NCBI GenBank assembly: GCA_947493175.1
Contig: CANLQD010000003.1
Coordinates: 620,001 to 684,000, forward strand
Reading direction: 5' to 3'
DNA length: 64,000 bases
DNA from: an uncultured Flavobacteriaceae bacterium
GTDB taxonomy: Bacteria > Bacteroidota > Bacteroidia > Flavobacteriales > Flavobacteriaceae
Under the pieces are notes generated by a model. The model searched no databases. It worked only from the letters and a program-made list of their open reading frames with translations, and had not been told where the DNA came from. Of this stretch, positions 2,401-49,523 are shown piece by piece (position 1 is the first letter of the stretch; each line of letters starts with the position of its first letter). Both the position numbers and the translations under genes were made by a program.

Positions 2401-2544
2401 ACAACCTCTGGGCTTTCGCACCGGGCATTTGAATCTTGATGATAGATCAAAAAGATACACGGGCATGGGGAATCGAGGCTTACAACAGACCCCATTACCA
2501 TGCAAAAGGGTTGTTAAGAGTTATGGACCTAAAACAAATTAAAA

Positions 2545-2985
2545 ATGGATGCTAGCACCTATATTGAAGAAAGACTGAACGGACAACAGCAATGGTACAG
2601 TGCCAAAAGTAGTTTGAATAAAAAATACCACACCCAACTGAAGATTTCAACCATTGTACTGTCAGTTCTGATTCCGTTCATCTCGGGATTGGAAAAACAG
2701 TTACCGGAGGAAGCTCCCATTTTGTTGCTACTGGCAATCTTAGGGTCATTGGTCGCTGTTTTGACCGCAATATCGGGTCTTATGAAATTTAAGGAAAAGT
2801 GGATCAACTATCGGACTGCATCGGAACGTTTAAAGAAAGAGAGGCTTTTTTGGGCCACTAAAACCGGGCCTTACGCCCAGCATATGGAAGGCTTCGATCT
2901 GTTGGTCAAGAGGGTAGAATCTATCATCAGCAGCGAAAATGGTGATTGGGGGAGCTATATGGGCGAAGGAATCCCTGTACCATAA
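2545..2985 (+). CDS. DUF4231/SLATT-type two-TM membrane protein
   Basis: This small 146-residue protein has an N-terminal amphipathic region (Y-I-E-E-R-L...W-Y), two adjacent hydrophobic helices (about 33-50 and 57-78) and a charged C-terminal helix with R-T-A-S-E-R-L-K-K-E. This matches the architecture of the DUF4231 branch of SLATT proteins (SMODS- and SLOG-associating two-TM effectors). Those are predicted to perforate or otherwise disturb the membrane when a cognate nucleotide-sensing partner is triggered. It sits 144 bases downstream of the SLOG-like gene on the same strand, the context expected for this family. The pore-forming role is inferred from family literature, not visible in the sequence. 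Confidence 0.7.
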   Translation: MDASTYIEERLNGQQQWYSAKSSLNKKYHTQLKISTIVLSVLIPFISGLEKQLPEEAPILLLLAILGSLVAVLTAISGLMKFKEKWINYRTASERLKKERLFWATKTGPYAQHMEGFDLLVKRVESIISSENGDWGSYMGEGIPVP

Positions 2986-3325
2986 ACCCCGGGGAGTCTT
3001 TTTATCGAAATACTATTTGAATGTTGAAAACAGGTGTATGAAAATTGAATTCCTTTTTACTGGATTATCGAGATTTATATGCTCGGGCGCCTGCCCGCCT
3101 TCATCTAACCCCTATGGCGGACGAAGGCCCCGAGGTAGTTTACTTGACTAATGCAAAAAATCGAAACATAGCCTTCGGCGTGTCACCGTAGCTTTCACGG
3201 AGGCACAAGCTACTGTACTTTTAATAAAGAATAGGTGAGAAAAAGAAACTGTTTATTAGCGTGATTTCACCGATCATTCGGTATATTACCCTAAGCGTAA
3301 ATCAACACCTTCAAAATCTGACATC
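2986..3325. repeat. Intergenic region with degenerate palindromic repeats
   Basis: This 340-base gap has no convincing gene. Between about 3085 and 3215 it carries two GC-rich imperfect palindromes unlike the surrounding AT-rich spacer. One is built on gccttc...gaaggc (about 3096-3129). The other is built on gcct..cgg..ccg..aggc (about 3171-3205). They resemble small mobile palindromic repeats made of 'gccttcg/cgaaggc' arms. A copy-number search of the genome would tell whether they are a dispersed family. Confidence 0.35.
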
Positions 3326-3976
3326 ATGAGCCAGTTAAGAAAATTTCAACGAACACACCAGTTGGTTGCCGATGGTATTTTAGGAAAAATAACCTTGACC
3401 AAAATGAAGGAAGTGTTCCATTTACCTTCGATCAACGGTACCGCCCATTTTGCTGGACAGCTGGCCCATGAGACCAACAATTTTAAGGCGCGTGTAGAAA
3501 GTTTGAACTACTCGGTCAAAGGATTGATCAACACCTTTTCGTTCTACCGAAAGAATCCGGATCTAGCAGAAAAACACGGACGAAAATCAGGGCAAAAGGC
3601 GAATCAACAGGCCATCGCCAATACGGTATATGCAGATGTTAATCGGAGTCCAAGAAACAGATTGGGCAATGTACACCCGGGAGACGGTTGGCGCTTTAGA
3701 GGTCGTGGGGCCATCCAGATAACGGGCAGGAATAATTACGAAGCACTTTTTAAATGGCTGGACCTTCCCAAAGATACAAATCCCGATGTAGTAGCCAGAA
3801 CCTATTATTGGGAAGCGGCACTTTGGTTTTTTGATGCTAGGAAGGTATGGCCGCTTACCACAGATGTTTCGGATGACAGCATTCGTAGGGTGACCAAAAA
3901 AATCAATGGCGGCACGAACGGGTTGGAGCATCGCCAAAACTTGACCCGGCTATTCCATATACTACTCACCGCATAG
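3326..3976 (+). CDS. Glycoside hydrolase family 19 (chitinase/lysozyme-like) protein
   Basis: This is a 216-residue protein. The first 30 residues look like the second half of a peptidoglycan-binding type 1 repeat (F-Q-R-T-H...V-A-D-G-I-L-G). The rest is a GH19 fold: G-Q-L-A-H-E-T at 44-50 gives the likely general acid E49, and E58 fits the general base. W-R-F-R-G-R-G-A-I-Q-I-T-G-R-x-N-Y is the hallmark GH19 segment. The reaction would be cleavage of beta-1,4 links in chitin or peptidoglycan; phage and bacterial homologues act as endolysins. There is no signal peptide, so export would need lysis or a non-Sec route. The gene stands alone, with a weak hairpin after the stop. Confidence 0.85.
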   Translation: MSQLRKFQRTHQLVADGILGKITLTKMKEVFHLPSINGTAHFAGQLAHETNNFKARVESLNYSVKGLINTFSFYRKNPDLAEKHGRKSGQKANQQAIANTVYADVNRSPRNRLGNVHPGDGWRFRGRGAIQITGRNNYEALFKWLDLPKDTNPDVVARTYYWEAALWFFDARKVWPLTTDVSDDSIRRVTKKINGGTNGLEHRQNLTRLFHILLTA

Positions 3977-3985
3977 GATGCCGAT

Positions 3986-4006
3986 AAGACCTTTTCAAAG
4001 GTTCTT
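3986..4006 (+). terminator. Probable terminator after the GH19 gene
   Basis: A short hairpin with a cctt(t)/aaagg core, extended by aaga/ttctt around a one-base bulge, begins 9 bases after the stop codon. It is followed by a T-rich stretch (ccctttatttatt). It also lies between convergent genes. Confidence 0.35.
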
Positions 4007-4097
4007 GACCCCTTTATTTATTATTTATAATTACTTGCAATCGCATTCTTTCATCAGACTTAAAAAGAGTTTGCGTATATCCCTTGAACCATCCTTA

Positions 4098-5321
4098 TTA
4101 AAGAAGCGGGCAGTTGTATTGTCCACAAGTAGTAGGGATTACCGGAGCGGTATTGTGTTGGATAATTGAGGTAATAAACCAGCTATCGCCGTCTTTCTCC
4201 AGATAAACGGTTTGCGGATTTTCCCGAGAGGCCCTATGCGTTAGGCAGGCATTGTCGTACGAGCTATGGGTATGTCCCGACCAAGTTTCGAACAATTCGA
4301 CCTCAGCTAACAATTTGCGTCCCTGGGGATAGATGTTCAACTCACCGAACGATTGACTTTCCAAAATATTGATATCATAAAACCCAAGAAGTCGATACTC
4401 CTCCAAAACCGTTTCTATCATTCGAAGGGCATCTCCTTTCAACACTTTTCGCAAAGGCTTTTCATTCAAGGTTAAAAACGCTCGTATCTCCAAATTGGAA
4501 GCAAGGGAAATGGCACTTTTAATGCTTCCCCTTTCTCTTGAATAGTTGGGCTTTTTAACCTCATTGGCAACGGGTTGCAAACCTGTTGGGCTTACCGATT
4601 CTACCTTGTTATCGCGAAGGTCAACAGCGTTCGTTTTTTCAACCTTGGCCGGTCTGTTCGTCAGGGTTTCGAACTTGTTATTGGTATTTTTATTCGAATT
4701 CCCGATAAAATTACGTCCTATCAGGAATACCGATGCAATGACTGCAATCGTTAATATGACCGAAACCACTACCTTTTGTTTTCTCTTTTGGGCTTCCCGT
4801 GCCTCTCGGGTACTCCCGCGGATACCCATGGCCTCGATCGATTTGATCAGTTGGTTCGAATCATATTCCCAGCGCGTATCGGCGAGTTCATGCGATTGTC
4901 TCCTAGATAGCAATTTCAGGTCTTTTGGAAGCTCATCCTCCTTCGGTACTTTTGCTCCCCCAACCAAGACCGGGATGACACGAATATCACGAGAAAGAGC
5001 GGTAGCTACTTCCAATCTAACGAAGTCATTCTTATCCTGAATTTTTACTTGTCCGTCCTTATCTTTCAGGGTAAGCCAATCCGGGCCGATAATGACCAGT
5101 AAAAGCTCACAAATACTTGTAGCATGCGCAATACTCTTCACAAAATCGGTTCCCTTTTCAATATTTTCGATGTCACGGAAGCATTGCCGGGCACCAAAAT
5201 GTTCGACCAATTTGTCGGCGATACGGCCCCCAAAACCGGCCCCCTCGCCAGTTCTTCGGTAACAGATAAAGATTTTGGGCCTGGCTTTGGCTCCTAATAT
5301 GGAAGTCAAATTCATCATCAA
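4098..5321 (-). CDS. Membrane-anchored TIR-domain protein
   Basis: This is a 407-residue protein. Residues about 15-160 form a TIR domain of the bacterial TIR_2 type: I-F-I-C-Y-R-R at 17-23, C-F-R-D-I-E-N-I-E-K-G at 47-57, I-I-G-P-D-W-L near 77-83, and F-V-R-L-E-V with E104 as candidate catalytic glutamate. A single TM segment follows at about 185-203. The C-terminal 120 residues form a small globular domain resembling the ARC6-like/IMS domain, a tentative match. Bacterial TIR domains often hydrolyse NAD+ in defence or killing. Unlike typical soluble defence TIRs, this one is tethered to the membrane, with its C-terminal domain probably across it. It is last in a minus-strand run of four genes, 164 bases after the M15 peptidase gene. 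Confidence 0.75.
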   Translation of the reverse strand: MMMNLTSILGAKARPKIFICYRRTGEGAGFGGRIADKLVEHFGARQCFRDIENIEKGTDFVKSIAHATSICELLLVIIGPDWLTLKDKDGQVKIQDKNDFVRLEVATALSRDIRVIPVLVGGAKVPKEDELPKDLKLLSRRQSHELADTRWEYDSNQLIKSIEAMGIRGSTREAREAQKRKQKVVVSVILTIAVIASVFLIGRNFIGNSNKNTNNKFETLTNRPAKVEKTNAVDLRDNKVESVSPTGLQPVANEVKKPNYSRERGSIKSAISLASNLEIRAFLTLNEKPLRKVLKGDALRMIETVLEEYRLLGFYDINILESQSFGELNIYPQGRKLLAEVELFETWSGHTHSSYDNACLTHRASRENPQTVYLEKDGDSWFITSIIQHNTAPVIPTTCGQYNCPLL

Positions 5322-5485
5322 CTATAAATGTACCGGATCATTCGATAAAAGTTTTTCGAAATAGCCATGTAAAACATTGATATATAAGATATTATTTCTG
5401 GCTTAAAGACCACTACAATCTTGTATAGACCGTATTGAATAGTGTATAAATGGCAAAAGATGAACGTTAGGAACTAAAACACGAC

Positions 5486-6562
5486 TCATTTTCCCAACTG
5501 TACCGCTAGCTGCATGGCTTTATAACGGGCTTCCCATTTACTGCGATCCTTATTCAAGTGATCATCGATATGCACTACATCCTTGACGGTAAAGGTTCCT
5601 CCCCAACGCAAACGGGGGTCATCGATAATCGATTTGATAAAAAGACGAACCGGCTCGGGTACATCGGGATAGTTGGCCAACACTTTCGAATTGGCCCACT
5701 GGTTATTGCCATAAATGACATTCATATCAATGGCATGGCCTGCCAAATGATTTGAAAAAATCGCTGGTTTTACAATAGCGCCCGCCACATTGGTAGTTGT
5801 ACGAAAAGAGCTTGTTACATGAACAAATACGTTGGCAGTCGCGGCATATGCATTAATCTGTTCGAGCATGGGAGCGAACTTCACATCGGCACGACAGGGT
5901 TTACCTCGAAATCGGGATGCCTCGAACAGTATCAAGGGAGATTTTTTGCTTGGCAGGTTTTTCTCGGCCAAGTCGCTCCAACGGCCCCCGTAAAAAGAGT
6001 TGATGTCCTCTAACATGATATTGATCAAGGGTCGGGTCAACCAGTCACCGTCCGATTCGATTCCGTGGTCTCTGGCATAAGCGATCATGGCATTTCGGGT
6101 ACTTTCCCCATATAGCCCGTCGGCACCGTACTTGGGAAAATTCAACAAGCCTCCATATCCCAGTTCATTCAACAAAACCTGAACGGCGCGAATGCTCATT
6201 CTGGTGCCTTTGGAAATGTACTTTCTGGTGCGCAGATCGGATGTATGAATCGACCACAAAACGTACATGTCCGGAAGAAAATCATGACGTTGCAAAATCA
6301 ATTTAGCAAGGGCATTCGAAACCTTGGCACCGTTACTTTGATGGTTGTTCCTTTTCGCGAAAGCGGCTACAGCTTGCGTGGTGGCAGTGCCATAATCACC
6401 ATCGGCCTGATACTGGTCCCAATTCAGTTCTTTTTGAAAACCCAGCTCGAACAACACCCGTTGCAAATCGGTAATCGTTTCTTTGTGTGGCGACCCCTTG
6501 AAAAGGACCTTCCCTATATCCCCCTTATGAAGGGCAGCCTCCATGATATTCGAACATGCCAT
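5486..6562 (-). CDS. M15 family D-Ala-D-Ala carboxypeptidase/endolysin with two peptidoglycan-binding repeats
   Basis: The 358 residues carry two peptidoglycan-binding-1-like repeats (about 28-90 and 120-185), each with a Y-x-A-D-G-x-Y-G-x-x-T core. A C-terminal M15 zinc peptidase domain follows. S270-x-H-x-x-G-x-A-x-D279 supplies ligands H272 and D279, and V-H-I-D-D supplies H331. Members cleave D-Ala-containing peptide bonds in peptidoglycan. No signal peptide is visible, as with the GH19 protein nearby, so it resembles phage-type or contractile-system-associated lysins rather than a secreted housekeeping enzyme. It lies 46 bases after the FAD oxidoreductase gene and probably shares its transcript. 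Confidence 0.85.
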   Translation of the reverse strand: MACSNIMEAALHKGDIGKVLFKGSPHKETITDLQRVLFELGFQKELNWDQYQADGDYGTATTQAVAAFAKRNNHQSNGAKVSNALAKLILQRHDFLPDMYVLWSIHTSDLRTRKYISKGTRMSIRAVQVLLNELGYGGLLNFPKYGADGLYGESTRNAMIAYARDHGIESDGDWLTRPLINIMLEDINSFYGGRWSDLAEKNLPSKKSPLILFEASRFRGKPCRADVKFAPMLEQINAYAATANVFVHVTSSFRTTTNVAGAIVKPAIFSNHLAGHAIDMNVIYGNNQWANSKVLANYPDVPEPVRLFIKSIIDDPRLRWGGTFTVKDVVHIDDHLNKDRSKWEARYKAMQLAVQLGK

Positions 6563-6608
6563 ATTTCTATTGATTAAAAAGCTTTGATGTTATTCGTCAT
6601 TGATCTTT

Positions 6609-8183
6609 TTATACAACAGCTTCTTGTACTTGGTCCAAACCACACTTTTCAAGAAATGCGCTATTGAATATGGTCAATGCAGGCTTACTTAGCAGTTGAT
6701 TTCTAGCATCGATCCAAGATTGTACCGCCGCTGCCCCATACATTTGCTTTAGCCGGGTTTTGTTCAAATTAAAATTAATTTTACCCCAATGTAGGGTATA
6801 TGGAATTTGGGCCTGTTCCAATTTATTCCAGACCGCTTCAAAATACGCCCTTGCGGCTTGTCCGTCGGCGCCGTCCATCTCTAACACACAGGTATTGGGA
6901 AATTTGGTAAACCCAAGGGTGGCCTCTGTCCCTTTGACATAGCGTAGGGAAAGTCCGCCTGGAAAAGGCTTCTGCTTGTTCACTTCCATGGCAAGTGCTA
7001 CCGCCTTTGGGGAGTTCTTGCTATCGATCGCAATGGCCGCACTGGCTACCTTTCCCCTAAATTTGGTATAATGAAACAATTCCCGAATGGTCCCGGTCCG
7101 GGGCGGCTCTGGTTTAAAGGCCATTCCGAACATCAGGTTTACCATCGTGGGAATCACTTTTCCAGAGCCCGGAAGCTTATCTAATACGGTTGAGATAATT
7201 CCCAAAAGATCATCACCATACGTAAATTCATTGCTACGCTGCAAGGGTATATGGGACGATTCGAACGGTTTTTTGAACATGTATTTTATAAAAGCCCCCT
7301 TATCCGGATTGTTGGGTTCAAATTTGTGCATATTGAAAAGCACTTCAAAGTGGTATATCTCGCCATTTACCCCTACCCCATCCAAGTTCAGGTCCGAAAA
7401 GTCTAGCGTTTGCATCGCTTTTTTCAAAGGAGCTGCATACGGAACGTTTCCCAGGCGATGTTCTGTCAAGAGAAACTGTGGCTCGGTCTCGATCATGACA
7501 CCGTGTATAAACCCAAAACTACCAAAACTGACCAAGGCTGCATTAAATAGGGCATCGTCTTGTATGAAATCGGCGTCTAGCCAATCAATGAGTTCCGGAG
7601 AAGCCACCGGATAAGAGGCTCGCTCTAACCAAACGTGTTTATCAGATCCCGTTATCAAATGCAGTCCGACCACAAAATCGGGAATGGCCCCTACCTTAAA
7701 AGCGGCACCGTGGGTACCGGTAGACAGGGCGCCTGCAATCGTTTGCCCGTTACTGGCTCCCGATGCTTTGATAGATCGCTGTGGAATCTTGGCCGCCAAT
7801 CTTGTATTGACCTCGTGAATAATCGTACCACACTGTAGAAAGTACAGGTCTTCCGGTTTTTTGGCATAGTCGGGACTCACATATTTTTGAATGATCGGAA
7901 AGGAAAAATTAAGCGAGGCCGTATCGACAAGTCCGCCTTCCGTCACCCCGACCTTGGTAAACGACCAGCCGCTACCCATGGCCCTAAGCTTAAAATTCTT
8001 GGTAGCCGCCTCCTTGATCAACCACTGAAAGTTTTTAGTGGTCGCCAAATAGCGTTCCCTTCGCGTACCCTCCTTGGGGTTTCGAATTTTGAAGGAGGTA
8101 TGGGGCACCAGTTGGTGGGTAAAATTCTCGTGCTTGTTACTCCATTCTTGAATAGGGAGTCGGGATATACCGTTGGGAAGCAT
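6609..8183 (-). CDS. FAD-linked oxidoreductase of the aldonolactone oxidase type
   Basis: This 524-residue protein has an N-terminal PCMH-type FAD-binding domain: M-G-S-G-W-S-F-T near residues 68-75 and G-A-S-N-G-Q-T-I-A-G-A-L-S-T-G-T-H-G near 142-159, the diphosphate-binding loop. Its C-terminal end (T-L-H-W-G-K near 470, then an R-N-Q-L stretch) matches D-arabinono-1,4-lactone/L-gulonolactone oxidases. The usual covalent-FAD histidine (G-H-S-F) is replaced by W-S-F, so FAD is probably bound non-covalently. The substrate is unknown; a sugar lactone or other polyol is the family default. No export signal is seen. It follows the lipoprotein gene by 18 bases and precedes the M15 gene by 46, so an operon is likely. 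Confidence 0.75.
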   Translation of the reverse strand: MLPNGISRLPIQEWSNKHENFTHQLVPHTSFKIRNPKEGTRRERYLATTKNFQWLIKEAATKNFKLRAMGSGWSFTKVGVTEGGLVDTASLNFSFPIIQKYVSPDYAKKPEDLYFLQCGTIIHEVNTRLAAKIPQRSIKASGASNGQTIAGALSTGTHGAAFKVGAIPDFVVGLHLITGSDKHVWLERASYPVASPELIDWLDADFIQDDALFNAALVSFGSFGFIHGVMIETEPQFLLTEHRLGNVPYAAPLKKAMQTLDFSDLNLDGVGVNGEIYHFEVLFNMHKFEPNNPDKGAFIKYMFKKPFESSHIPLQRSNEFTYGDDLLGIISTVLDKLPGSGKVIPTMVNLMFGMAFKPEPPRTGTIRELFHYTKFRGKVASAAIAIDSKNSPKAVALAMEVNKQKPFPGGLSLRYVKGTEATLGFTKFPNTCVLEMDGADGQAARAYFEAVWNKLEQAQIPYTLHWGKINFNLNKTRLKQMYGAAAVQSWIDARNQLLSKPALTIFNSAFLEKCGLDQVQEAVV

Positions 8184-8201
8184 AGGTCTTGTTTTAAGGT
8201 T

Positions 8202-8555
8202 CTACATGGGTCCGTCTCCGTCTGAAGGTCTGGCACAACCGTAGGTAACGGTCCGGTGATTCACAGTGCCCAAGGTGACCAAGCCAAGCAGTACGTCTGT
8301 AAAAGATGACTTCACGACCACCCAACTAAGCGCACCTTCGTCACAAGCGCAGCTATTGCCTGCAATCTCGGGATTCACATCCACTCGTTTTTGGCTCAGG
8401 CCCCAGAAATAGCTCCAGCTCGATGCTTCCTGACACTCGAGATTCACTGCGGTATCCTGATACGGACTCGCTTCGACCCGAGTACTCACACAAGAGGATG
8501 TAGTCGATAAGATCAGCACAAGAAGGAATACAATCCCTTGTTTTTGGATGTTCAT
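8202..8555 (-). CDS. Bor-like small lipoprotein
   Basis: This is a 117-residue protein with a lipoprotein signal: a hydrophobic stretch from about residue 9 and a lipobox ending S-S-C at C22. The mature part has W-S-Y-F-W-G-L-S-Q-K, then a V-L-L-G-L-V-T-L-G-T run and a late Y-G-C. That order resembles the Bor/Iss lipoproteins of lambdoid phages, whose ending has a similar L-L-G-F-I-T-L-G run before a final cysteine. Bor proteins sit in the outer membrane. The match is remote and rests on layout and one motif. It is first in the minus-strand run and could serve as the surface-exposed part. Confidence 0.5.
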   Translation of the reverse strand: MNIQKQGIVFLLVLILSTTSSCVSTRVEASPYQDTAVNLECQEASSWSYFWGLSQKRVDVNPEIAGNSCACDEGALSWVVVKSSFTDVLLGLVTLGTVNHRTVTYGCARPSDGDGPM

Positions 8556-9025: not shown

Positions 9026-10837
9026 ATGGCACATCAAGAATACTGGGAAAGAAGAGGGTTTCCCTGGGAGCACGATCCAGGTCCGCCAAAGAACATGAGT
9101 TGGGCCAGGCTTTTTTCAGAAACACCCAACTACCGAGCCCTTGCAGAAGCATATATGGGAAGGGGCAAGTTCCGATGGCATTTCGGCCCCATGTACTATC
9201 GTGGTCGGTTGAAAAAAAACAACGTGCGTGTACTGGTCATCGGGCAAGAAGGGGCCATGGACGAAAGCCTTGCCCATCGTGCGTTTGTAGGAAGTAGTGG
9301 CGGACGTATGCAACACCTGCTCGATTACATCGGTATCGATTACAGTTACCTTTTCCTGAACACCTTTGTATATCCCATTAACGGGCAGTATTCCGAACGA
9401 AAAATCAAGGTGCTGGCACAGCACGAGGCTTCTCCCATTCTACGGCAACGGTGCGAGATCCTTGAATATGTGCGGGAGAAAAATGACCTGCGTTTGATTA
9501 TTGCGGTGGGCACTGCCGCTAAGGAAACCGTTTGCACCTGGATTACCCAACTGGGAGGGCAATGTCCGGACGGTATCGCCGACCTGAGCACTGCTGACGC
9601 CCACTTGATTTCTCCCAAGGCCCAGGCTATCGGTATCATTCATCCCGGAGCGCTACATCAGGCCGATATGAAAGTGAAGGTGCAGGAAGATTATAAAAGG
9701 GCCATGAACCAAATAGCGGAATGGGTGGCCCAAGATGCAGACTGGCTACCGACCGACCCGGGTATGCAACGTGATTTTTCGGTTCCTTTCGAAATTCTTA
9801 AAAAGCCGATTCCCTTTCGCGACTTGCCCGTGGGAATTAGCTGGCGATTGGGAAATGGCACTTCGGCAGGGAGGCGATTAGATGACCAACGTACGATTCA
9901 GCTCTCGGCGGCCATACCGCGAGGGGAACGGCACGACACCTTCTATCGTGGATTGGCCCAAGGCAGCCCGGAAGGCTACCAGGAGGAGATAGGAGACGTA
10001 CCTTACGAACCGCCAGTCTTCGATTACGAGGCCTATGATATGGGTCCGCCAGAGGCCTTTCTCAAATTGATCATGGGCGGATACCCCGGAAAGGAATGGC
10101 CCGATTTTCAATCGCTGGGGGTTACCGCACATCCTTCCTTGGGCGGCATGCCCCTATTTCGTGGGCGGCCCGACAAAACAACACTCCTGGTATTGGCCGA
10201 CCCACAATCGGTAGACGACCTGTTCTGCATGCGAGCACTCTGCGGAAATAGCGGACAACATTTTCAGGCATTTTTGCAGGCAGCCGGAATCAGCACCCGC
10301 TACTGTATTCTCAGAAGCCTTCCTGTAGATGTTACCGGACTATCGTTGCGGCATCGGATGCGATTGGTACGACAGCCACAAGTACAGAAAATGTACCGGG
10401 CCCTTTTGGACAAAGTGTTGGATTACGACGATGCTTCCGCCATTTTATTGATGGGACCTTTGGCCCAAGAACATTGGCGATTGGCGGGCATCGACACGGA
10501 ACTTCCTGTGGTGTCATTAAAAAACCGCTCACAACGTCAATGGCTACCAAGTTGGAAAGAAGCATTGCGTCAGTTATCCACCATCAATTATCCGAAAGAA
10601 GCTACCGCTAGTTTTGCCTATGACGGCCACCGCTCCCAAATTCCCAGACACGACCTTCCTTATGGCTTTTTGCGATGGCAAGGCACTAGTGGCAATCGCG
10701 TGAAAAGGGCCAAAAAAGAGAACGGCGAATGGTCGCCCTATTACTACAAGTGGTTTGCTCCCGGCTGGGTATTCAAAAGCAAGCCGCGAAGTTTGTCCGA
10801 AGAAGAAAAGCAATTAGTAACCCAATTACCCGATTAA
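9026..10837 (+). CDS. Tandem uracil-DNA-glycosylase-fold protein
   Basis: This 603-residue protein (ATG at 9026 preferred over an upstream TTG at 8999) contains two copies of a UDG-superfamily domain. The first has V-L-V-I-G-Q-E-G-A-M-D-E near residues 69-80, then R-A-F-V-G-S-S-G-G-R-M-Q-H-L-L, the family 4/5-type motif 1 (G-E-x-P-G...P-F-V-G-x-x-G). It also has I-I-H-P-G-A-L-H, resembling motif 2. The second has L-V-L-A-D-P-Q-S-V-D-D...A-L-C-G-N-S-G-Q-H-F-Q-A-F-L, but I see no HPx motif, so it may be inactive. UDGs remove uracil or damaged bases from DNA; both active-site carboxylates and substrate are uncertain here. The stop is 2 bases before the amidohydrolase-S41 gene, so the products likely act together. 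Confidence 0.65.
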   Translation: MAHQEYWERRGFPWEHDPGPPKNMSWARLFSETPNYRALAEAYMGRGKFRWHFGPMYYRGRLKKNNVRVLVIGQEGAMDESLAHRAFVGSSGGRMQHLLDYIGIDYSYLFLNTFVYPINGQYSERKIKVLAQHEASPILRQRCEILEYVREKNDLRLIIAVGTAAKETVCTWITQLGGQCPDGIADLSTADAHLISPKAQAIGIIHPGALHQADMKVKVQEDYKRAMNQIAEWVAQDADWLPTDPGMQRDFSVPFEILKKPIPFRDLPVGISWRLGNGTSAGRRLDDQRTIQLSAAIPRGERHDTFYRGLAQGSPEGYQEEIGDVPYEPPVFDYEAYDMGPPEAFLKLIMGGYPGKEWPDFQSLGVTAHPSLGGMPLFRGRPDKTTLLVLADPQSVDDLFCMRALCGNSGQHFQAFLQAAGISTRYCILRSLPVDVTGLSLRHRMRLVRQPQVQKMYRALLDKVLDYDDASAILLMGPLAQEHWRLAGIDTELPVVSLKNRSQRQWLPSWKEALRQLSTINYPKEATASFAYDGHRSQIPRHDLPYGFLRWQGTSGNRVKRAKKENGEWSPYYYKWFAPGWVFKSKPRSLSEEEKQLVTQLPD

Positions 10838-10839
10838 CC

Positions 10840-13800
10840 ATGCCAACAAAAATTCAACTAGGTCCCGACGCACGTTATGCCGTGCGCGGCAAGATTGTAA
10901 CGTTCAATGATCATTCGGATATTTTGGACGATGGCGTCCTGTACATCCATGGGAACACCATCGTTGATGTGAAGCCCTATAAAGATGACGCGCCGGACAG
11001 CTTCAACAAATCCGATGCTATTTCTTGCGGCGGTACCCTGTACCCGGGAATGATCGAACTGCACAACCACCTCAGCTATAATATTATTCCTTTGTGGGAT
11101 ATTCCCAAGGCCTATGGCCATCGGGGCCAATGGGGCAAGGGAAATCTGTATCGAAAGACCGTAACCGGGCCTTTGAAAGTACTGGGGCATATTGATGGTT
11201 ACTTACAAGCCATCGTGCGATATGTAGAATGCAGGTTGCTTTTTTCGGGGATTACCGCCTCGCAAGGAATTACCTTGGCCAGTCATGGGGGCATTACCAA
11301 ACTCTACAAAGGTCTCATTCGCAATGTGGAACGTACCGTTGACGAAGACCTGCCCTCGGCAAAAACCAAAATAGCCGATATCGACGATGCCCAAAAGTTG
11401 CTCAACATTCTGGACAAAAGCAGCTGTTACCTATTGCACCTTGCCGAAGGCACCCAAGAGAAGGCCAACAAACATTTTAGGGCCTTACAGTTACCTAATT
11501 CAATGGAATACGCCATCACCGACTCGCTAGTGGGCATCCATTCCGTTGGGCTCTTTCCCGAGGATTTCAGAATTCTAGGGCAACACCACGGAGGAATGGT
11601 ATGGTCGCCCCTATCGAACCTTTTGTTGTATGGTGTTACCGCCGATATTGCCGCTGCCCGTGAACACGGCATATTGATCGGGCTCGGATCCGACTGGACC
11701 CCAAGCGGCAGCAAGAACATGCTCGAGGAATTGAAAGTGGCCAAACTCGTAAACGACCAAAAAGGAGGTATTTTCACCGACGAGGAGCTATGCCGTATGA
11801 CGAATACCAATGCTGCACGGTTATTGAAATGGGAAGACCATTTAGGAACATTGGGCCCAGGAAAAAAAGCCGATTTTATCGTTTTATCGGGAAAGGACGA
11901 CGATGAGTACAAACGACTGATTGCCGCCCGGGAATCGACCGTCATATGGACAGTAATTGGCGGGGTGCCACGCTGTGGTCAAAAACGGTTGATGGGCAAG
12001 TTTGCAATTTCCCTTGAAAAAGTCCGCTTACGACGGGTAACGCGCTATCTCAATCTAGAGGAAACCTTCGATGACAATCCGATTCAAGTAAACCTTGCCT
12101 ATGGGAAGGCCCGACAATTATTGGAAGAAGGCATGCGCAACCTCCCTGACCTGACCAGACAGTTAGAAGACAACGGTACCCTGGGCATCTTTAACGGGGC
12201 CGCCGCCACGGATGGTAGCGGTGCTTTCTGGTTTATCGAATCGGAACACGAAGACCACGGCCATCGCCATCACATTCCGTTCGAAGGGGAAGATTCGGCA
12301 GGAACCATCTTCGAGGCAGCAACGCCCTTGTCCGAATTGATTACCGAGCGACGTTCCTTGGATAAGGCAACAGTTTTAGAGGATACCCATCATTTTAAAC
12401 GCTTGGCATTGCAACGTAACCTGCCCGAATACATTAAAACGGGGCTACCGGCCTACTATGGACAAACAATCCATTTAAGCGATGCGGTACGGGAAAAGGC
12501 GAAACCGGGCTTCGATACGGCGGCGCAGTTCAATTACGTAGTGACCTTGGCAAACTTTCGAAACACATTGGGGTATATGAACCTGAGCGATAAGATGGCT
12601 GTTATAGACGAGGCGATCAAGGTATTCGAAATGGCCTATGTGCACCTAGCGCAAAAAACCGCACTCTATGCGGCCAACCCCGTAAGGCAACTGCAAGTCA
12701 TCAAACAGGAATTGATATCGGGAGCGTACGAGGATCAGAACGAACTACATTTTCATGAATGCGTTATCCGAGTGTTCAATTCGGTACGCGACCTTCATAC
12801 CATGTATCAACTGCCCATGCCCTATAAGGATAAAGTAGCCTTTTTGCCCTTTTTCGTGGAACAGTACCATGATGTAAACGGAGCCCGATTTATTGCGTCT
12901 AAAATTTTAGGGAAATCGGAACCTCCCTTCGAGGCGGGCGTACACATAACCCACTGGAACGGCGTTTTGATCGAGAAAGCAATTTTGAACAATGCTAAAA
13001 AATATGCGGGAAGCAACGAAGAGGCACGATTCGCCCGAGGTTTGGACAGCCTTACCTTTCGCCCCTTGGCCACGATGCTGCCCCCTGAGGAAGAATGGGT
13101 CTCGGTACGCTACCTAGACCGGGATGGGCGCGCCCATAACCGGAGGTTTACCTGGTACGTGGGGTCTATTCACTCTACCCTTTGGGACCATCTGGAAAAT
13201 GAACAGGGCATCTCAAAACTCAGTTCCTGTGCCGGGTACGACTACAGTACGGAGCTATTGCACAAAACCAAGCTGCACTTTTTTGCGCCCCAGGTTGCAC
13301 GGAATGCCCTGAACGCTAGCCGCATAGAACCAAACAATCAAGAGGTATTGGACCAGGCTGAATTTTCGGCCTGCTTTAAGACCGCAAAATTGGCAGATGA
13401 TATAGGGTATATACGCATCTATACCTTCAACACAAGGCGCCCAAAAGATTTCGCCCTGTACTTTAAAAAGCTGTTAGCATCCTTTGATACCGATAAGGTG
13501 GTACTGGACATTCGCAATAACGGCGGCGGGCATATCTGGGCCTCGGAATTTGTATTACAGGCCCTTAAAAAAGACCTGATCACCCCTCAAAATGCACAGT
13601 TCGTCAACTCAGAGTTGACCGAGACCATCTGTCGTGTGCATTCTCCTTCCCCCCTCTTAAAGGAACTTGACCTGACCGATTGGAACAAAACGCTTCGGAA
13701 TATACGGCATACGGGCAATACCTATTCGGGCGGCTATCCGGTAACCCCCGTTTCAGCACTCCATGAACTTAGGGCCGATCGCGATTATCAAGCGGTCTTG

Positions 13801-14214
13801 ATCACCGATGCGCTCTGCTACAGCGCCAGTGATATTTTTGCTGCCGGCTTTCAAGATGAACATATAGGGAAAATCCTGGGCGTTCACGGGAATACCGGTG
13901 CGGGAGGTGCCAATGTATGGACGCATTCGTTGTTGCACCACCTGACCAAAGACGAGACCGGACAATCCCGTTTTTTCCAACCCTTGGAGTATGGGGCCGA
14001 CATACGGGTAGCCGTTCGCCGAACGCTGCGAAACGGTGTCAACCAAGGGGTCCCTTTGGAAGATTTGGGCATTGTACCCGATGATATCTGCCACCTTACC
14101 AAAGATGACCTGTTGTTTCAAAACCGGGATTTGTTGGCCAAGGCGGTGGATTTGGTACGGGGGTTGGAGCCGGTTTTGAAAACTAATAATACGGTAGCAG
14201 AGGTCATTGGCTAA
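10840..14214 (+). CDS. Amidohydrolase fused to S41 (C-terminal-processing) protease
   Basis: This 1124-residue protein starts at the ATG 2 bases after the UDG-fold gene. Its N-terminal 420 residues are an imidazolonepropionase-like amidohydrolase: G-M-I-E-L-H-N-H with H75-x-H77, G-I-H-S, G-L-G-S-D-W-T-P, and the closing N-A-A-R-L-L...G-K-K-A-D-F-I-V-L. After a helical middle comes an S41/TSPc domain: V-V-L-D-I-R-N-N-G-G-G-H substrate loop and D-A-L-C-Y-S-A-S-D-I-F with the likely nucleophilic serine. No signal peptide or PDZ domain is obvious, so it is probably cytoplasmic, unlike most S41 proteases. Amidohydrolases open cyclic amides or deaminate bases, and S41 enzymes cut protein C-termini. 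The fusion is unusual. The substrate is unknown. Confidence 0.75.
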   Translation: MPTKIQLGPDARYAVRGKIVTFNDHSDILDDGVLYIHGNTIVDVKPYKDDAPDSFNKSDAISCGGTLYPGMIELHNHLSYNIIPLWDIPKAYGHRGQWGKGNLYRKTVTGPLKVLGHIDGYLQAIVRYVECRLLFSGITASQGITLASHGGITKLYKGLIRNVERTVDEDLPSAKTKIADIDDAQKLLNILDKSSCYLLHLAEGTQEKANKHFRALQLPNSMEYAITDSLVGIHSVGLFPEDFRILGQHHGGMVWSPLSNLLLYGVTADIAAAREHGILIGLGSDWTPSGSKNMLEELKVAKLVNDQKGGIFTDEELCRMTNTNAARLLKWEDHLGTLGPGKKADFIVLSGKDDDEYKRLIAARESTVIWTVIGGVPRCGQKRLMGKFAISLEKVRLRRVTRYLNLEETFDDNPIQVNLAYGKARQLLEEGMRNLPDLTRQLEDNGTLGIFNGAAATDGSGAFWFIESEHEDHGHRHHIPFEGEDSAGTIFEAATPLSELITERRSLDKATVLEDTHHFKRLALQRNLPEYIKTGLPAYYGQTIHLSDAVREKAKPGFDTAAQFNYVVTLANFRNTLGYMNLSDKMAVIDEAIKVFEMAYVHLAQKTALYAANPVRQLQVIKQELISGAYEDQNELHFHECVIRVFNSVRDLHTMYQLPMPYKDKVAFLPFFVEQYHDVNGARFIASKILGKSEPPFEAGVHITHWNGVLIEKAILNNAKKYAGSNEEARFARGLDSLTFRPLATMLPPEEEWVSVRYLDRDGRAHNRRFTWYVGSIHSTLWDHLENEQGISKLSSCAGYDYSTELLHKTKLHFFAPQVARNALNASRIEPNNQEVLDQAEFSACFKTAKLADDIGYIRIYTFNTRRPKDFALYFKKLLASFDTDKVVLDIRNNGGGHIWASEFVLQALKKDLITPQNAQFVNSELTETICRVHSPSPLLKELDLTDWNKTLRNIRHTGNTYSGGYPVTPVSALHELRADRDYQAVLITDALCYSASDIFAAGFQDEHIGKILGVHGNTGAGGANVWTHSLLHHLTKDETGQSRFFQPLEYGADIRVAVRRTLRNGVNQGVPLEDLGIVPDDICHLTKDDLLFQNRDLLAKAVDLVRGLEPVLKTNNTVAEVIG

Positions 14215-14382: not shown

Positions 14383-17256
14383 TCATAAGAGCTCCATGTA
14401 AAAGGCCTTGGTGTTTTCCTTAAAGTACCAGCTTCTTTTTTCTGGTTTCGTATTATTTCTTAAATCAAACTCCAATATAGGGTTCACATGATAGTTTAGA
14501 TTTTTCAAAGAATAAAACAGCGAAAAATACCTGTTATTGATATCCGCAATAATATCGCCCAAGTCGACTCCCTTTATTTCTATTTTTTTTAATTCAATTT
14601 CCCTTGATTCCTTCTCAGTTTGAGCACGCCATTTAAATCCATTCAAACTACTGTCTATACTGGGGTTTGTAACTTTATCTTTTAGCGTGAGACCAAGACG
14701 TTTCACAAATTTCGAGTCGGTTTTATGTGTCGTAATAGATTCTGGCATCTCGCTCATTGAAGATTTGGTTTGTTCCAAGTACTCCAGATAATATAATTGA
14801 AAAAGGTATTGATAGGTACCATCGGATTTGCGATATTCCTTCATTGGCACCATATGCTCTGCATATATTGAACTGCGAAAAGTAAGTTTCGTCTTCCTTC
14901 GTATTCTGCCTTGGCTAAGAACCGAAATGGTAATGGGAATGAGCCTCTTGTAATTAATCTCGTCAGCGATGGACATGGTATACTTTTTAACTCCTTTTGT
15001 CAAAGAGGCAAACGCCCTGAATTTAAAAAAATAAAAAGGAGCGACCACTGCTAAAATTCCGGCAAAACTACCGATGACCAACGAAGGTACTTTACCGACT
15101 GTCCACCGGGAAACCCCCTTCCTAGCTAATAAATTTACAACACGGTCTACTCCTGGAGCATATAGGTTATTGTACAGATCTTTGGAAAAACGATACGACT
15201 TTTTGTAAAAGGCAAGTTCCAATAAAACTCTGGTAAGCCGCGACTCGGTCGAATTTAATGTATCGCTTCTTAAAATTGGACACTCATTCGGGCCTCTAAA
15301 ACCCTTTTTTTCATCGGCTTCGCTAAGTGACAACAGGGTACTTAATCTACCATATTCAAAGGCGTATTTTCTGGACTCCAAAGAGGCAAACCCGGCAAAT
15401 GCCGCTACCTCACTCCCGGGTAACTTAACCGTGTATAACACCTCAGGGGCGACGGGCAATATAGACAGTTGTTCTGCCCTTTCGTTTTTACCAACTGTTT
15501 TTAACGAAAAATCGGCCATCATACGAAATACGGTCTGTGCAAATACATTGTTTCGTTCTGCTCTGATACCTTCTTCGGAAACCTCCTCGTTCAACAAATC
15601 AAATATCTGATCAATAGATAAACTGTTTTTAGCAATAGCGCTGTGAATTTTTTCTAAAACGATTCTAGATAGCTGAATAGGCGGTTTTCCCAGCATGAGA
15701 CAATTTCGTATCAATTCATTCTGAAAATATACCAAAACATCCCTTGTGCCGATAGATATTAGTTCTTTCTGTAAGTTTTTATGGATCTTATCAAAGGCGG
15801 TTTTTACTAAGGGGACGGTTAAATTTCTAAAGGTGCTGGTACCGATAAAATCGAATAGTTCGTCTCTAAACAGTAAATTCTCGCGCATGTCGTCGATACG
15901 ATGCTCTTCTTTTATGCTTCCTTGATTGGCAAGTACACCCACGGTACCGGTAATATTATCGAACAATTTGGCAGCTTCTTTTTTAAACTTTGTATTGCGA
16001 TTCTTTGTAACTACCGAAGCAAACGAGTTTACATTGAACGAATGATGCTTTTCTTCCCTGACGGCGGGATCTACGAACAGAATTAAGCGATCAAAATCTT
16101 CATCGTGATTCCCAAAATCCTGAAAGCTGCCTATCCGAAACGCTTCGCGAATAGGTTCGTTATTAAAAGTACCCCCATCGATATAAGGGAAATTAAAAGA
16201 ATCGTAGTCAACATAATTGTCGCCCGCCTCGTTGAAAAAGCTCTTTTTCCTCAACTTGTTTTGGGGAATACCCGCCAACTCATCCTGGATTTCACCAAAC
16301 ACTTTGGGCCATGCATTATTGGGAAATTCTTCTTTATAACGCTTAAGCAAAACTGGTTCAAAGGCTACGGGAAAAGCTCCACATGCCAAGGCCGTTGCGG
16401 TAACTACAGCCCATGCTTTTTTCCCATCGATATGTAAATCCATTTTATGGTCCTCACCCGATTTTGACAGTTTAAACCAACTGGCATCGCTGGCCTTTGT
16501 TTTTTGGATTTTTTCGTTGAAAACAAAGTCGATAACGCGCAGTTCGGTATGATTTTGTGACCCGATAGATTTGAGAACATTTTCCTGTAAGCGTCGTGGT
16601 GGCGGATCTTGGTCTACCTGAAGTTCTATAGGTAGCATATTGGTTAGAGAGCAAGCTAAAATTACCCTGTCAGGGTCAAGCAATTGCCTGTTTTCCAAGT
16701 CCCAGTTGTCTTTGAAATCGGACACAACGTATGCCTTGGCCAATTGTACTAAAAGGCTGCGGTCCAAAAGACTAAACGATGCATGAGGATTTATAGCATA
16801 CTTTCTCTTGACCTTATCACCAAAAAGCTTTGTACTGTTCAGTTGCTCGACCCATATCTGCCTTTGCACTTTTTGTGCGAGTTGCAAGGCTACCAGTTGA
16901 TTCCTAACCTTCAGGGATTCTGTTAACTTACTGACATCCCCATTGTAATAGTCATCAACAATTTCTTTTAAAAGGGAATCATAGGAAACCTTCGATTTAG
17001 ATTCGGCTATCTCCCCATTGAAAATTTCCATCATCTTTTTATAATCGATAAGTGATTTCAACAAGATAACCAAGGCGATAGCGCCAGCGCTGGCACCGCT
17101 CATGCCATCGATTACCACATCAGTGTATTTTACACCTTTTTTGTCGTGACCAAAGAGGAGCAATAGTTTAATGGCTTCGGTCAAAGAAGCACCGGAAAAG
17201 GAGCCCAAGGAGACCCCACCGCCCATGGCGAGGCAGATTTTTAGTTTTTTTGGCAT
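14383..17256 (-). CDS. Large patatin-like phospholipase with membrane segment
   Basis: This 957-residue protein has the complete patatin signature. G12-G-G-V-S-L-G18 is the oxyanion hole, G54-A-S-A-G58 holds nucleophile S56, and D360-G-G completes the Ser-Asp dyad. The substrate is expected to be membrane phospholipid acyl esters. The C-terminal 550 residues are not recognised. They include one clear hydrophobic segment (V-I-G-S-F-A-G-I-L-A-V-V-A-P-F-Y-F-F, about 705-725) that could anchor it. It is about twice the length of simple patatins and convergent with the amidohydrolase-S41 gene. A -7-like sequence (caaaacta at 17306-17313, i.e. TAGTTTTG on the coding strand) lies 50 bases upstream without a well-spaced -33. 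Confidence 0.85.
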   Translation of the reverse strand: MPKKLKICLAMGGGVSLGSFSGASLTEAIKLLLLFGHDKKGVKYTDVVIDGMSGASAGAIALVILLKSLIDYKKMMEIFNGEIAESKSKVSYDSLLKEIVDDYYNGDVSKLTESLKVRNQLVALQLAQKVQRQIWVEQLNSTKLFGDKVKRKYAINPHASFSLLDRSLLVQLAKAYVVSDFKDNWDLENRQLLDPDRVILACSLTNMLPIELQVDQDPPPRRLQENVLKSIGSQNHTELRVIDFVFNEKIQKTKASDASWFKLSKSGEDHKMDLHIDGKKAWAVVTATALACGAFPVAFEPVLLKRYKEEFPNNAWPKVFGEIQDELAGIPQNKLRKKSFFNEAGDNYVDYDSFNFPYIDGGTFNNEPIREAFRIGSFQDFGNHDEDFDRLILFVDPAVREEKHHSFNVNSFASVVTKNRNTKFKKEAAKLFDNITGTVGVLANQGSIKEEHRIDDMRENLLFRDELFDFIGTSTFRNLTVPLVKTAFDKIHKNLQKELISIGTRDVLVYFQNELIRNCLMLGKPPIQLSRIVLEKIHSAIAKNSLSIDQIFDLLNEEVSEEGIRAERNNVFAQTVFRMMADFSLKTVGKNERAEQLSILPVAPEVLYTVKLPGSEVAAFAGFASLESRKYAFEYGRLSTLLSLSEADEKKGFRGPNECPILRSDTLNSTESRLTRVLLELAFYKKSYRFSKDLYNNLYAPGVDRVVNLLARKGVSRWTVGKVPSLVIGSFAGILAVVAPFYFFKFRAFASLTKGVKKYTMSIADEINYKRLIPITISVLSQGRIRRKTKLTFRSSIYAEHMVPMKEYRKSDGTYQYLFQLYYLEYLEQTKSSMSEMPESITTHKTDSKFVKRLGLTLKDKVTNPSIDSSLNGFKWRAQTEKESREIELKKIEIKGVDLGDIIADINNRYFSLFYSLKNLNYHVNPILEFDLRNNTKPEKRSWYFKENTKAFYMELL

Positions 17257-17619
17257 GGTATCACACTCTTTGGTTGGTTATTGTATTGTTCGGGACAAAA
17301 ACGAACAAAACTACTTTTACAATGTAGCAAAATTTAGTCTGTCGAGCATAAATCAAACTAAAAAAGAACGAATTACCTTTCAAAAAACTAAACTTAAGTC
17401 CTAAATCTATGTCTGTTTAGATCCTTGAGTAAAAAACCATGGTCTAAAAGATACATTCTTACAAACCAGAAGCATAATTTAACTCGATATGATGAACTAA
17501 AGGCTTCACTAATTCATAAAGCAGTGAATGAAATTCCATGTTCAATTTCCGTATAAGCTAAGGAACAAATGAATCTAGTCTACCATTTCAAAACCTATTT
17601 TACCAAGAATTTTCGAAAA
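17257..17619. other. Intergenic region
   Basis: This AT-rich gap of 363 bases has no coding frame or strong hairpin. The left part should hold the promoter of the patatin gene. The right part follows the stop of the NTPase gene. Confidence 0.4.
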
Positions 17620-20600
17620 TTATAATTTAAAAACGGGGCGCCAACCAAACCTTGTGGAATTGATATCTTCATTGGTCATACCCTTAATGACATCACCGTC
17701 GAAGTATTTGTGTTCATTCGGAAACATGGTTGGGAATGGCACATAACTTTTATCGTTTGCAACGATATAATCATTAATCAACTCCTTGGCGTCATCAGAC
17801 TTTTGATAAACGCGGGAAAGTAAATCCTTTGATGGCAAGTCAAAGTTTTCAACATCAGTAAACCTACTGAATACGGTTTGAATACCTTCTTTGTTAAACT
17901 GTTTCCGTGGAATTGCATAAATAATATTCTTATCCCTATAACCCACCAGCTTATAATCAACACTTCTATCACACAACTCTTGATCAAAACCATAGGCCAA
18001 CATCTTAATAAGTTCGTTGGTCTTCATTACTCTGTTGAAAGTATACTCTTTCAAAAGGTTTTTCCACTTTTTCAAATAACTTTTCAAGCCAAATCGATCT
18101 TCATAAGTTTTTAGCAAACCGTTGTCATAAAGTTCATTAAATATACGCAAGGAGATAGCGGTAAGAAACTGTCTATCAGACTCATCTTTTTTAGGGATTG
18201 TGTCTAAAATTTGATCAATAGTTATAAGTAGTTGACCTGCCTCCTGTCGTTTGACCCATAGTGTAAAATGATTCAATATTTCATCAAACAAAGAGCTTTC
18301 CATGTTCGCAATGTTTAAGAATTCTCCCATCAGCAAATTACCGGCATTCGAAGACCATGTGCGACAACAATATTCAAACAATACTATTTTATCCTTTGTA
18401 TTATGAAAAAGAATAAATACTTCAGGGGAATCAAGTTTATGATACGCATAAACAGATGACACCAATTCTGTTCTATTATTTCCCGATATAAACTCTTTGA
18501 AAAGGATTTGTAGGTTTTTGTCTATCTTAAGAACTCTAGCAAGACAGTTCGCCAATATGATCTTATCATGTTTCGAAAGAGTTTCCCTTTCAAATGTTCT
18601 CATCAAATCATCCGCTAGGATTTGAAGGTTTTCAGCCTTTCTATTGAGGAACAAAATGTAGTCTTCGGATAGAATTTCTTTCAACACGCCTTTATCCCTT
18701 TCTGAATTGATAATTGATTTCAAAACCACAATAAGGTCATCTACACGAAAACTCAGTTTAAAAATTTCCAAGGAATTTTTCTTTGCCAAAGAACTAATTA
18801 GATTATGAACTACCCCTTCAACTCTTGCTTGTTTATCCTTATCCGGGTTTTTTTTGGCTGTATTTCTGATATAATCGGATATGTAGTCTTCTTGTATGGT
18901 TATTGCTGCCGCTCCATCTTGCATGAATTTATCAGGCAGACTAGAATGTTCATTTAAGATTCCGGAGGCCTCACAAGATTTAATAAAAATTTTGGCCGTT
19001 TTAATATCCGAAATCATATTGTTAGACCAAGGAATTATCCGTTCAGGAATTATGTTTTTTATAGAAGCCCGAGTCTCCTCAGAGGAATCTCTTCTATAAT
19101 TGTATATTCTATTCATTGTAATATTTCCCAATACTTTGATAATATCAATGTCTCTTTCTTCTAGTAAAATCGTATCCACGGCCTCTTTTGTAAAACCTTC
19201 TTTTGGCAAGCTTTTAATTTTACTTATCTGATCATCCGCGCTATAAGCGGTTTTGGTGATACTGTTCAGTACAGGTTTAAGAATCTTTTCTATTTCGTTT
19301 CTGACCAGCTCGTCTAGCTCAACCCCTTGGTTCGAAACCGACAGTATTCTCAACAGATATGTTGAAAAGGAGTGGATAGATTTCAACCAAGGTTTGGAAG
19401 TTATCGTTGCGGCGCTTTCATTCCAATCTTTTACTATCTGTAAAGCCTCTTCGTAGCTCCATAGCCTACTCTTTATTTCGAGATTATATATTCTAGATTT
19501 ATCAAGAGGTTGAAATACCCGTGCAGCAAGCACAAATTTTATGTTATAGGCAGATTTCGATGATAGAAAAGATAAAATATCTTTGTATAGGTTCTCGGAA
19601 TATTCCAAGTTATCGATAACCAGCAATAATTCGATACTTCTCCTGTTAAGTAGCACCCATAGCACATCTTTTACGATATGGGACTCACTTTGTGAAACAT
19701 CGAAGATTTCGTTCAAATCGATATAATCCAATATCCTGTTTACGAAAGCATCGTATTTTCCTATGTACTCTTTGATATCCGATATATCATCATGGGAATT
19801 AAAGCATATGATCAGTGTATTGCTATGAATTACATTCCGTATAAGGTAATCGAGTAATTCGGTCTTGCCCGAACCCGGTTGGCCCTCAATTTGAATTAAT
19901 CTACTCTCATTAATTGAATCATAGCCTTTTACCCTATTTTCCAATAACTGAACCGGTATTCTTTTACTATTGCCAAAATCTAGATGCCCGAAAACATTCT
20001 TTTCCAAAAACCGTGATTTGGCCAAATTCTGTAGGGAAACGATTTTCCCTACTTCATAATAAAACTCCTGCTGTTCGTACAATCTTTCTTGTTTGGCATT
20101 CTCATATTCCGGAAAGAACAGGTGAGGTAAAAATAGCTCCAACAGAAGTTTAGATTCTGGAAACCAGTCGGTGGATACTACTTTTAACTTGTCATACAAA
20201 TCGATTAACTTTTCCTTGGATTTGACAATATAGTTAGGCATTCGTATCCAAATTCGAAGCTCAGCGTGATGACCCAAAATGTTGAAAAGCTTTTTTGAAA
20301 TTCCGTTTTCAGTATCGCTGTTCCTTAAATTGGCTTTAAAAGCATTGACCACATCTTCGTTGGTTACCTCATGAATGTCCTGGTTTAGGAATAGTGACAT
20401 ATCAAAATAGAGATAGTAGTCCGAAGACGGGCATAGCGTGTCTTCATTATGGGCATCAAATTCTAAAGGGATGAATTTTGACCCGGACTCAAATGGTTTT
20501 TTGGATGTATTGGGAGATTTGAACCTCTTTATCCAATTATTTAGTACCTCATTCGCAAACTTTTCGATTCTTTTTTCTTCCGTACGATTTATGGGAAGAT

Positions 20601-38363: not shown

Positions 38364-38390
38364 ATTAAGAGGTAATAAAAGTCTTCGAAG

Positions 38391-49522: not shown

Positions 49523-49523
49523 C

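What the first reader, a model, noticed from the sequence alone, without database searches (positions are those of the whole stretch)
9026..14214. Tandem UDG-fold protein coupled to an amidohydrolase-S41 protease fusion
Two genes 2 bases apart combine a DNA base-excision fold used twice with a protein joining a metal amidohydrolase and a serine protease. A base-releasing enzyme next to a cyclic-amide hydrolase suggests processing of modified bases, with the protease as an output. The fusion lacks an export signal, which is odd for S41.
Basis: partly seen in the sequence, partly recalled or inferred. Interest (0 to 1): 0.75.

Follow-up and report, generated by a model that had tools for sequence, protein, structure and literature searches.

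The report
DNA-glycosylase, deaminase and protease gene pair
Two neighbouring genes in a flavobacterium encode a doubled DNA-base-removing enzyme and a deaminase fused to a protease; the same combination recurs in distant bacteria, so it is a real, undescribed enzyme module, probably used in fights with viruses or other cells.

Summary
Gene 9026-10837 (603 aa) carries two UDG-superfamily domains. Both are closest to BdiUNG (Blr0248, PDB 5gn2); the second is degenerate. Two bases on, gene 10840-14214 (1124 aa) fuses a guanine-deaminase-like amidohydrolase to a CPAF-like S41 protease. Catalytic residues of both enzymes are invariant in all homologues aligned. There is no signal peptide.

All four fused amidohydrolase-S41 genes found in Flavobacteriaceae have a BdiUNG-like gene directly upstream. 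In a 100-genome sample BdiUNG-like proteins occurred only in the two genomes known to carry the cassette. A Variovorax plasmid has S41, P460, amidohydrolase and a UNG-type glycosylase as adjacent separate genes.

The window lies just downstream of an extracellular contractile injection system (eCIS). In Pseudozobellia the cassette directly follows an eCIS_core cargo gene. All five amidohydrolase-bearing Flavobacteriaceae have an eCIS, although two cassettes lie elsewhere in the genome. Standalone amidohydrolase relatives occur in plasmid defence islands.

Best reading: an intracellular conflict cassette attacking non-canonical DNA bases, with protease output (0.40). Main rival: injected eCIS cargo (0.28). 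No activity is shown. No literature on this combination was found.

The parts
9026..10837 (+). tandem BdiUNG-like UDG-superfamily protein, 603 aa
9143..9877 (+). first UDG domain (residues 40-284 aligned to PDB 5gn2); motif A GQEGA at 9242, motif-B His at 9641
10139..10717 (+). second, degenerate UDG domain (motif A-like LADPQS at 10193; motif-B His absent)
10840..14214 (+). amidohydrolase-S41 fusion protein, 1124 aa
10873..12447 (+). amidohydrolase domain; H75, H77, H200, E203, H234 and D285 (11062, 11068, 11437, 11446, 11539, 11692) invariant in 13 homologues
12547..14160 (+). CPAF-like S41 protease domain; putative catalytic H653 (12796), S995 (13822), E1074 (14059) invariant in 8 homologues

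Best explanation
A two-gene intracellular conflict (defence-type) cassette. Shown by sequence: a BdiUNG-class glycosylase, doubled in this lineage, is paired in every fused case found with a deaminase-type amidohydrolase fused to a CPAF-like serine protease with intact catalytic residues. Inferred: the glycosylase and the amidohydrolase act in sequence on a non-canonical base of invading DNA. Either the amidohydrolase converts a modified base into one that the glycosylase removes, as BapA prepares the substrate for Brig3, or it deaminates the freed base. Abasic DNA results. The fused S41 domain gives a proteolytic output when the amidohydrolase is engaged. The second UDG domain probably only binds DNA.
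For: Pairing in all four fused cases and in two kinds of genomic setting. BdiUNG-like proteins in 2 of 100 Flavobacteriaceae genomes sampled, and both carry the cassette. Independent association of amidohydrolase, S41 and a UNG-type glycosylase in Variovorax. Patchy distribution: 5 of 397 family genomes carry the amidohydrolase, and only the window genome in 395 drawn across the phylum. Standalone amidohydrolase homologues lie beside PADLOC-recognised defence genes: PD-T7-1-like and RmrT in Rhizobium; IetA and IetS in R. johnstonii; PDC-S26 with dptH in Massilia. UDG-superfamily enzymes are proven defence enzymes, including a two-gene operon (Brig1, Brig3-BapA; PMC11078745, PMC13160076). The neighbourhood holds TIR, SIR2-TIR, nSTAND1, patatin and TPR-S genes. 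The HxxE motif and ranking of hits place the amidohydrolase with base deaminases.
Against: No PADLOC model matches either protein. Two of the four cassettes sit among housekeeping genes, not defence genes, and the other two sit at an eCIS. The defence-island relatives are standalone amidohydrolases without UDG or S41, on plasmids that are rich in defence genes anyway. In the window the catalytic Asp position of UDG motif A is Glu (GQEGA), so activity may be altered or lost. No phage copies were found.
Confidence: 0.4

Rival explanations
1. The two proteins are eCIS cargo: loaded without a Sec signal into the particle tube and injected into a target cell, where the glycosylase and deaminase damage DNA or nucleobase pools and the CPAF-like protease cleaves target proteins.
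For: eCIS structural genes (sheath, tube, LysM tube protein, spike, gp25, AAA ATPase, two eCIS_core proteins) lie directly upstream of the window. In Pseudozobellia the cassette follows an eCIS_core gene directly, and assembly overlaps suggest it is the last gene of the locus. All 5 amidohydrolase-bearing Flavobacteriaceae have eCIS_core, and the three besides the window genome and Pseudozobellia also carry eCIS structural genes beside it, against eCIS_core in 20 of 127 others (Fisher p 1.7e-4). Published effector criteria include 3'-end position, eCIS_core (DUF4157) adjacency and an enzymatic domain (PMC8213781, PMC11297309).
Against: Two of four cassettes are on other contigs than the eCIS locus. 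Neither protein carries eCIS_core. About 15 genes separate the pair from the eCIS core in the window genome. Relatives exist on proteobacterial plasmids with no eCIS seen nearby.
Confidence: 0.28
2. A nucleobase salvage, catabolism or base-excision repair pair: the glycosylase releases deaminated or modified bases from the cell's own DNA or nucleosides and the amidohydrolase degrades them; the protease is regulatory.
For: BdiUNG-class enzymes have a broad substrate range (PMC8307549). In S. meliloti a relative of the Variovorax UNG lies next to a GMC oxidoreductase and near a nucleoside hydrolase and an amidohydrolase of another subfamily. Two cassettes are embedded in housekeeping regions.
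Against: Very sparse distribution for a repair function; the window genome already has two other UDGs. A fused cytosolic CPAF-like protease has no obvious role in salvage.
Confidence: 0.17
3. The co-location is incidental: an accessory region has collected unrelated enzymes and the two genes have no joint function.
For: The window region is rich in unrelated accessory genes.
Against: 4 of 4 pairing with gaps of a few bases, fusion orthologues only 39% identical that are still paired, and an independent association in Variovorax.
Confidence: 0.03

Closest known systems
BdiUNG (Blr0248, PDB 5gn2), a broad-specificity class of the UDG superfamily
   Same: Both UDG domains align to it; the single-domain versions in G652 and G728 keep GQDP and a motif-B His, and G652 matches at E 1.4e-27.
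   Different: Here doubled, motif A is GQEGA, the second copy lacks motif-B His, and the gene is coupled to an amidohydrolase-S41 gene.
Brig1 and Brig3-BapA anti-phage glycosylases
   Same: UDG-superfamily enzyme in an accessory island; Brig3 is in a two-gene operon with a base-modification hydrolase (PMC11078745, PMC13160076).
   Different: The partner is a deaminase-type amidohydrolase plus protease, not a glucosyl hydrolase; no phage test here; sequence relation to Brig1 or Brig3 not tested.
Guanine deaminase / TRZ-ATZ subtype of the amidohydrolase superfamily
   Same: Best profile hits; HxH, H, H, D ligands and HxxE motif.
   Different: Far below equivalog cut-offs (60.6 against 375 bits); substrate unknown; fused to a protease.
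CPAF-type S41 protease (CT_858, PDB 3dor)
   Same: Profile covers CT_858 over most of its length; His, Ser and Glu positions invariant in the homologues.
   Different: Below the CPAF equivalog cut-off; no signal peptide; fused to an amidohydrolase.
eCIS-associated toxins (EATs)
   Same: Position at the 3' side of an eCIS locus beside eCIS_core proteins in Pseudozobellia.
   Different: No eCIS_core domain in either protein; two of four copies are unlinked to the eCIS locus.

Membership tests
UDG superfamily | UDG domain above Pfam cut-off | tested here: met
   PF03167 31.3 bits against 24.3 for domain 1; domain 2 only through profile comparison
UDG superfamily | intact motif A acidic residue and motif-B His | tested here: inconclusive
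   Domain 1: GQEGA (Glu for Asp) and HPG present; domain 2: Asp in LADPQ, His missing
Amidohydrolase superfamily, base-deaminase type | HxH, H, H, D metal ligands and HxxE | tested here: met
   Invariant in 13 homologues
Guanine deaminase equivalog | TIGR02967 score at or above 375.4 | tested here: not met
   60.6 bits
S41 peptidase | S41 domain with catalytic Ser and partners | tested here: met
   63.4 bits against 24; H653, S995, E1074 invariant
CPAF equivalog | NF033424 score at or above 250 | tested here: not met
   54.4 bits; similar in extent to CT_858
Known anti-phage systems in PADLOC-DB | match to a system component model | tested here: not met
   no match for either protein
Brig-type defence glycosylase | excision of phage-modified bases and phage protection | not testable with these tools
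   needs assays
eCIS-associated toxin | encoded in the accessory region of an eCIS locus | tested here: inconclusive
   met in G000 and G020, not in G652 and G728, which have an eCIS elsewhere
eCIS-associated toxin | protein found in the particle lumen or toxic on delivery | not testable with these tools
   needs proteomics

The most novel reading that the evidence does not exclude
A new three-activity immune or effector module in which a base-excising glycosylase and a base deaminase process the same non-canonical DNA base and thereby switch on a fused CPAF-like protease, so that a released or altered nucleobase acts as the trigger for proteolysis.
Probability: 0.22. Interest if true: 0.88.

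Novelty: new variant of a known kind. Interest (0 to 1): 0.6.

Why it matters
Glycosylase-based defence is recent (Brig1, Brig3-BapA), and nucleobase-deaminase partners or protease outputs have not been described for it in the papers searched. If the cassette is eCIS cargo instead, it would add DNA-base-attacking enzymes and a CPAF-like protease to the effectors of this nanomachine. Either way it gives a small, testable two-gene unit, with cleaner single-UDG versions in two other genomes.

Tried and rejected
AlphaFold2 of the UDG protein from a 2-sequence alignment: pLDDT 31, not used and no fold search run. Viral-contig, phage and plasmid searches for the UDG protein: no relatives. Viral contigs and phages for the amidohydrolase and S41: none. 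The 71-aa N-terminal domain of the G652 and G728 glycosylases was tested as a shared loading tag: only those two genes carry it in the five genomes; similar 68-aa proteins on Gordonia and Rhodococcus plasmids gave no functional clue. The idea that the cassette always sits at an eCIS locus was rejected by G652 and G728. The Azospirillum UNG relative near an amidohydrolase looks frameshifted, with similarity fading in the C-terminal part, so it is not counted as an intact case. The BdiUNG primary paper is not held.

Full report
Observation. The two genes are real and placed as described: 9026-10837 and 10840-14214, separated by CC. The first protein has a Pfam UDG match above cut-off in its N-terminal half; its best solved relative is Blr0248/BdiUNG, PDB 5gn2, E 1.5e-17 over residues 40-284. 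The C-terminal half has no Pfam match, but profile comparison with the first half gives P 95%, E 2e-8 and shuffles are exceeded by 12-14 SD, 8 SD for the weakest pair. A profile built from four UDG domains finds it again at E 8.9e-20. The first copy has motif A GQEGA where BdiUNG has GQDPA and keeps a motif-B His; the second lacks that His. So 'tandem UDG fold' is right, with a probably non-catalytic second copy.

The second protein joins an amidohydrolase (best profiles: guanine deaminase, TRZ/ATZ, 8-oxoguanine deaminase) to an S41 protease (63.4 bits). The metal ligands H75, H77, H200, H234, D285 and the deaminase-type HxxE glutamate E203 are invariant in 13 homologues. H653, S995 and E1074 of the S41 part are invariant in 8. 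The role of these residues is assigned from established knowledge of the two families, not tested. The S41 profile covers most of Chlamydia CPAF (CT_858). No N-terminal hydrophobic stretch exists in either protein.

Conservation. One relative, in Pseudozobellia thermophila, has both genes, 77-78% identical. A profile search of 397 Flavobacteriaceae found five genomes with this amidohydrolase. Three are G000 (the window), G020 (Pseudozobellia) and G034 (amidohydrolase alone). The other two, G652 and G728, have amidohydrolase-S41 fusions only 39% identical to the window protein. In both, a single-domain BdiUNG-like gene lies a few bases upstream with an intact GQDP motif; the G652 protein matches 5gn2 at E 1.4e-27. 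Thus 4 of 4 fused genes have the glycosylase. In 100 Flavobacteriaceae genomes the BdiUNG-like profile matched only G000 and G020; G652 and G728 were not in that sample.

Outside Bacteroidota the two halves of the fusion occur as separate genes on plasmids. In Variovorax sp. RA8 the order is S41, cytochrome P460-like, amidohydrolase, then 13 bp on a 'hypothetical protein' that is a UNG-type glycosylase (Pfam weak; PDB uracil-DNA glycosylase 5x3g, E 5.8e-8). A relative of that glycosylase, apparently decayed, also lies near the amidohydrolase of Azospirillum argentinense. So glycosylase, base-deaminase-like amidohydrolase and S41 have come together with different UDG families, which is stronger support for functional coupling than the flavobacterial cases alone. 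The other plasmid loci examined have the amidohydrolase or the S41 without a glycosylase detected nearby.

Context. The window is G000:C3:620001-684000. The 40 kb before it encode an extracellular contractile injection system: sheath, tube, CIS tube protein with LysM, spike, gp25, AAA ATPase and two eCIS_core proteins. In the window genome about 15 genes (SIR2-TIR, nSTAND1-WD40, patatin-like, TPR-S, GH19-like, TIR, M15, FAD oxidoreductase and others) lie between the eCIS and the pair. In Pseudozobellia the pair follows an eCIS_core gene directly, and contig-end overlaps suggest that it is followed by a SusC/SusD unit. All five amidohydrolase-bearing genomes have strong eCIS_core proteins; in G652, G728 and G034 eCIS structural genes lie beside them. 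The background rate is 20 of 127, Fisher p 1.7e-4. Counting only genomes of 4.2 Mb or more, read by hand, weakens this to p 0.01-0.04. In G652 and G728 the cassette is on a different contig from the eCIS locus.

Relatives of the amidohydrolase alone sit in defence islands on plasmids: next to PD-T7-1-like and RmrT genes in Rhizobium sp. CB3060, a few genes from IetA and IetS in R. johnstonii, and near PDC-S26 and dptH in Massilia. Neither window protein matches PADLOC-DB itself.

Mechanism. Shown by sequence: the fold families, intact catalytic residues of the deaminase and protease, pairing in every fused case, cytosolic character. Inferred: action on DNA bases, order of the steps, protease as output. 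I favour an intracellular conflict cassette because the pair is self-standing in two genomes, very patchy, and of a type with proven precedents: Brig1, and the two-gene Brig3-BapA, where a partner hydrolase makes the base a substrate for the glycosylase. The eCIS-cargo reading is nearly as good for the window and Pseudozobellia copies and accounts for the genome-level link. Published effector criteria fit the Pseudozobellia position, but neither protein carries eCIS_core, and half of the copies are unlinked. A salvage or repair role is less likely.

Comparison and novelty. I found no paper describing this combination, within an open-licence library only. Each domain is known; the fused amidohydrolase-S41 architecture, its constant BdiUNG partner and the tandem UDG appear undescribed. 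I rate it a new variant of a known kind, with a categorically new sensing mechanism possible but unproven.

Noticed in passing
G000:C3:580001-620000 (L038, L036), directly upstream of the window: An eCIS locus with two eCIS_core cargo-type proteins, followed by SIR2-TIR and nSTAND1-WD40 genes.
   Followed up: yes
window 370-8555: Accessory run: TPR-S protein, a SLATT-like small membrane protein (by eye), GH19-like and M15 peptidoglycan-binding enzymes, TIR protein, FAD oxidoreductase; possibly further eCIS cargo or defence genes.
   Followed up: partly
window 14383-20766: Large patatin-like protein (957 aa, just below cut-off) next to a 1048-aa AAA/STAND-type NTPase, convergent with the cassette.
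   Followed up: no
L032-L034 (G020 contigs C19, C26, C36): The 3' end of the Pseudozobellia S41 gene is duplicated; contig ends suggest a partial copy beyond a SusC/SusD unit.
   Followed up: partly
L035 and L096: The lone G034 amidohydrolase and the G652 cassette lie at the same chromosomal spot (YceI-like and two small conserved genes), suggesting a hotspot or partial loss.
   Followed up: partly
L052 and L102: A cytochrome P460-like gene sits next to the amidohydrolase in both Variovorax and R. johnstonii; GMC oxidoreductases recur in R. johnstonii and Azospirillum.
   Followed up: partly
L055:8393-12322: S8 subtilase fused to the same CPAF-like S41 domain in Mesorhizobium, beside PLD and M28-M36 proteins; another undescribed fusion.
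   Followed up: no
window 37380-40925: NMT1/THI5-type ABC transporter genes followed by a DUF3865 haem-oxygenase-like protein.
   Followed up: no
window 48497-50078: DUF5712 protein, suggesting a conjugative element remnant nearby.
   Followed up: no
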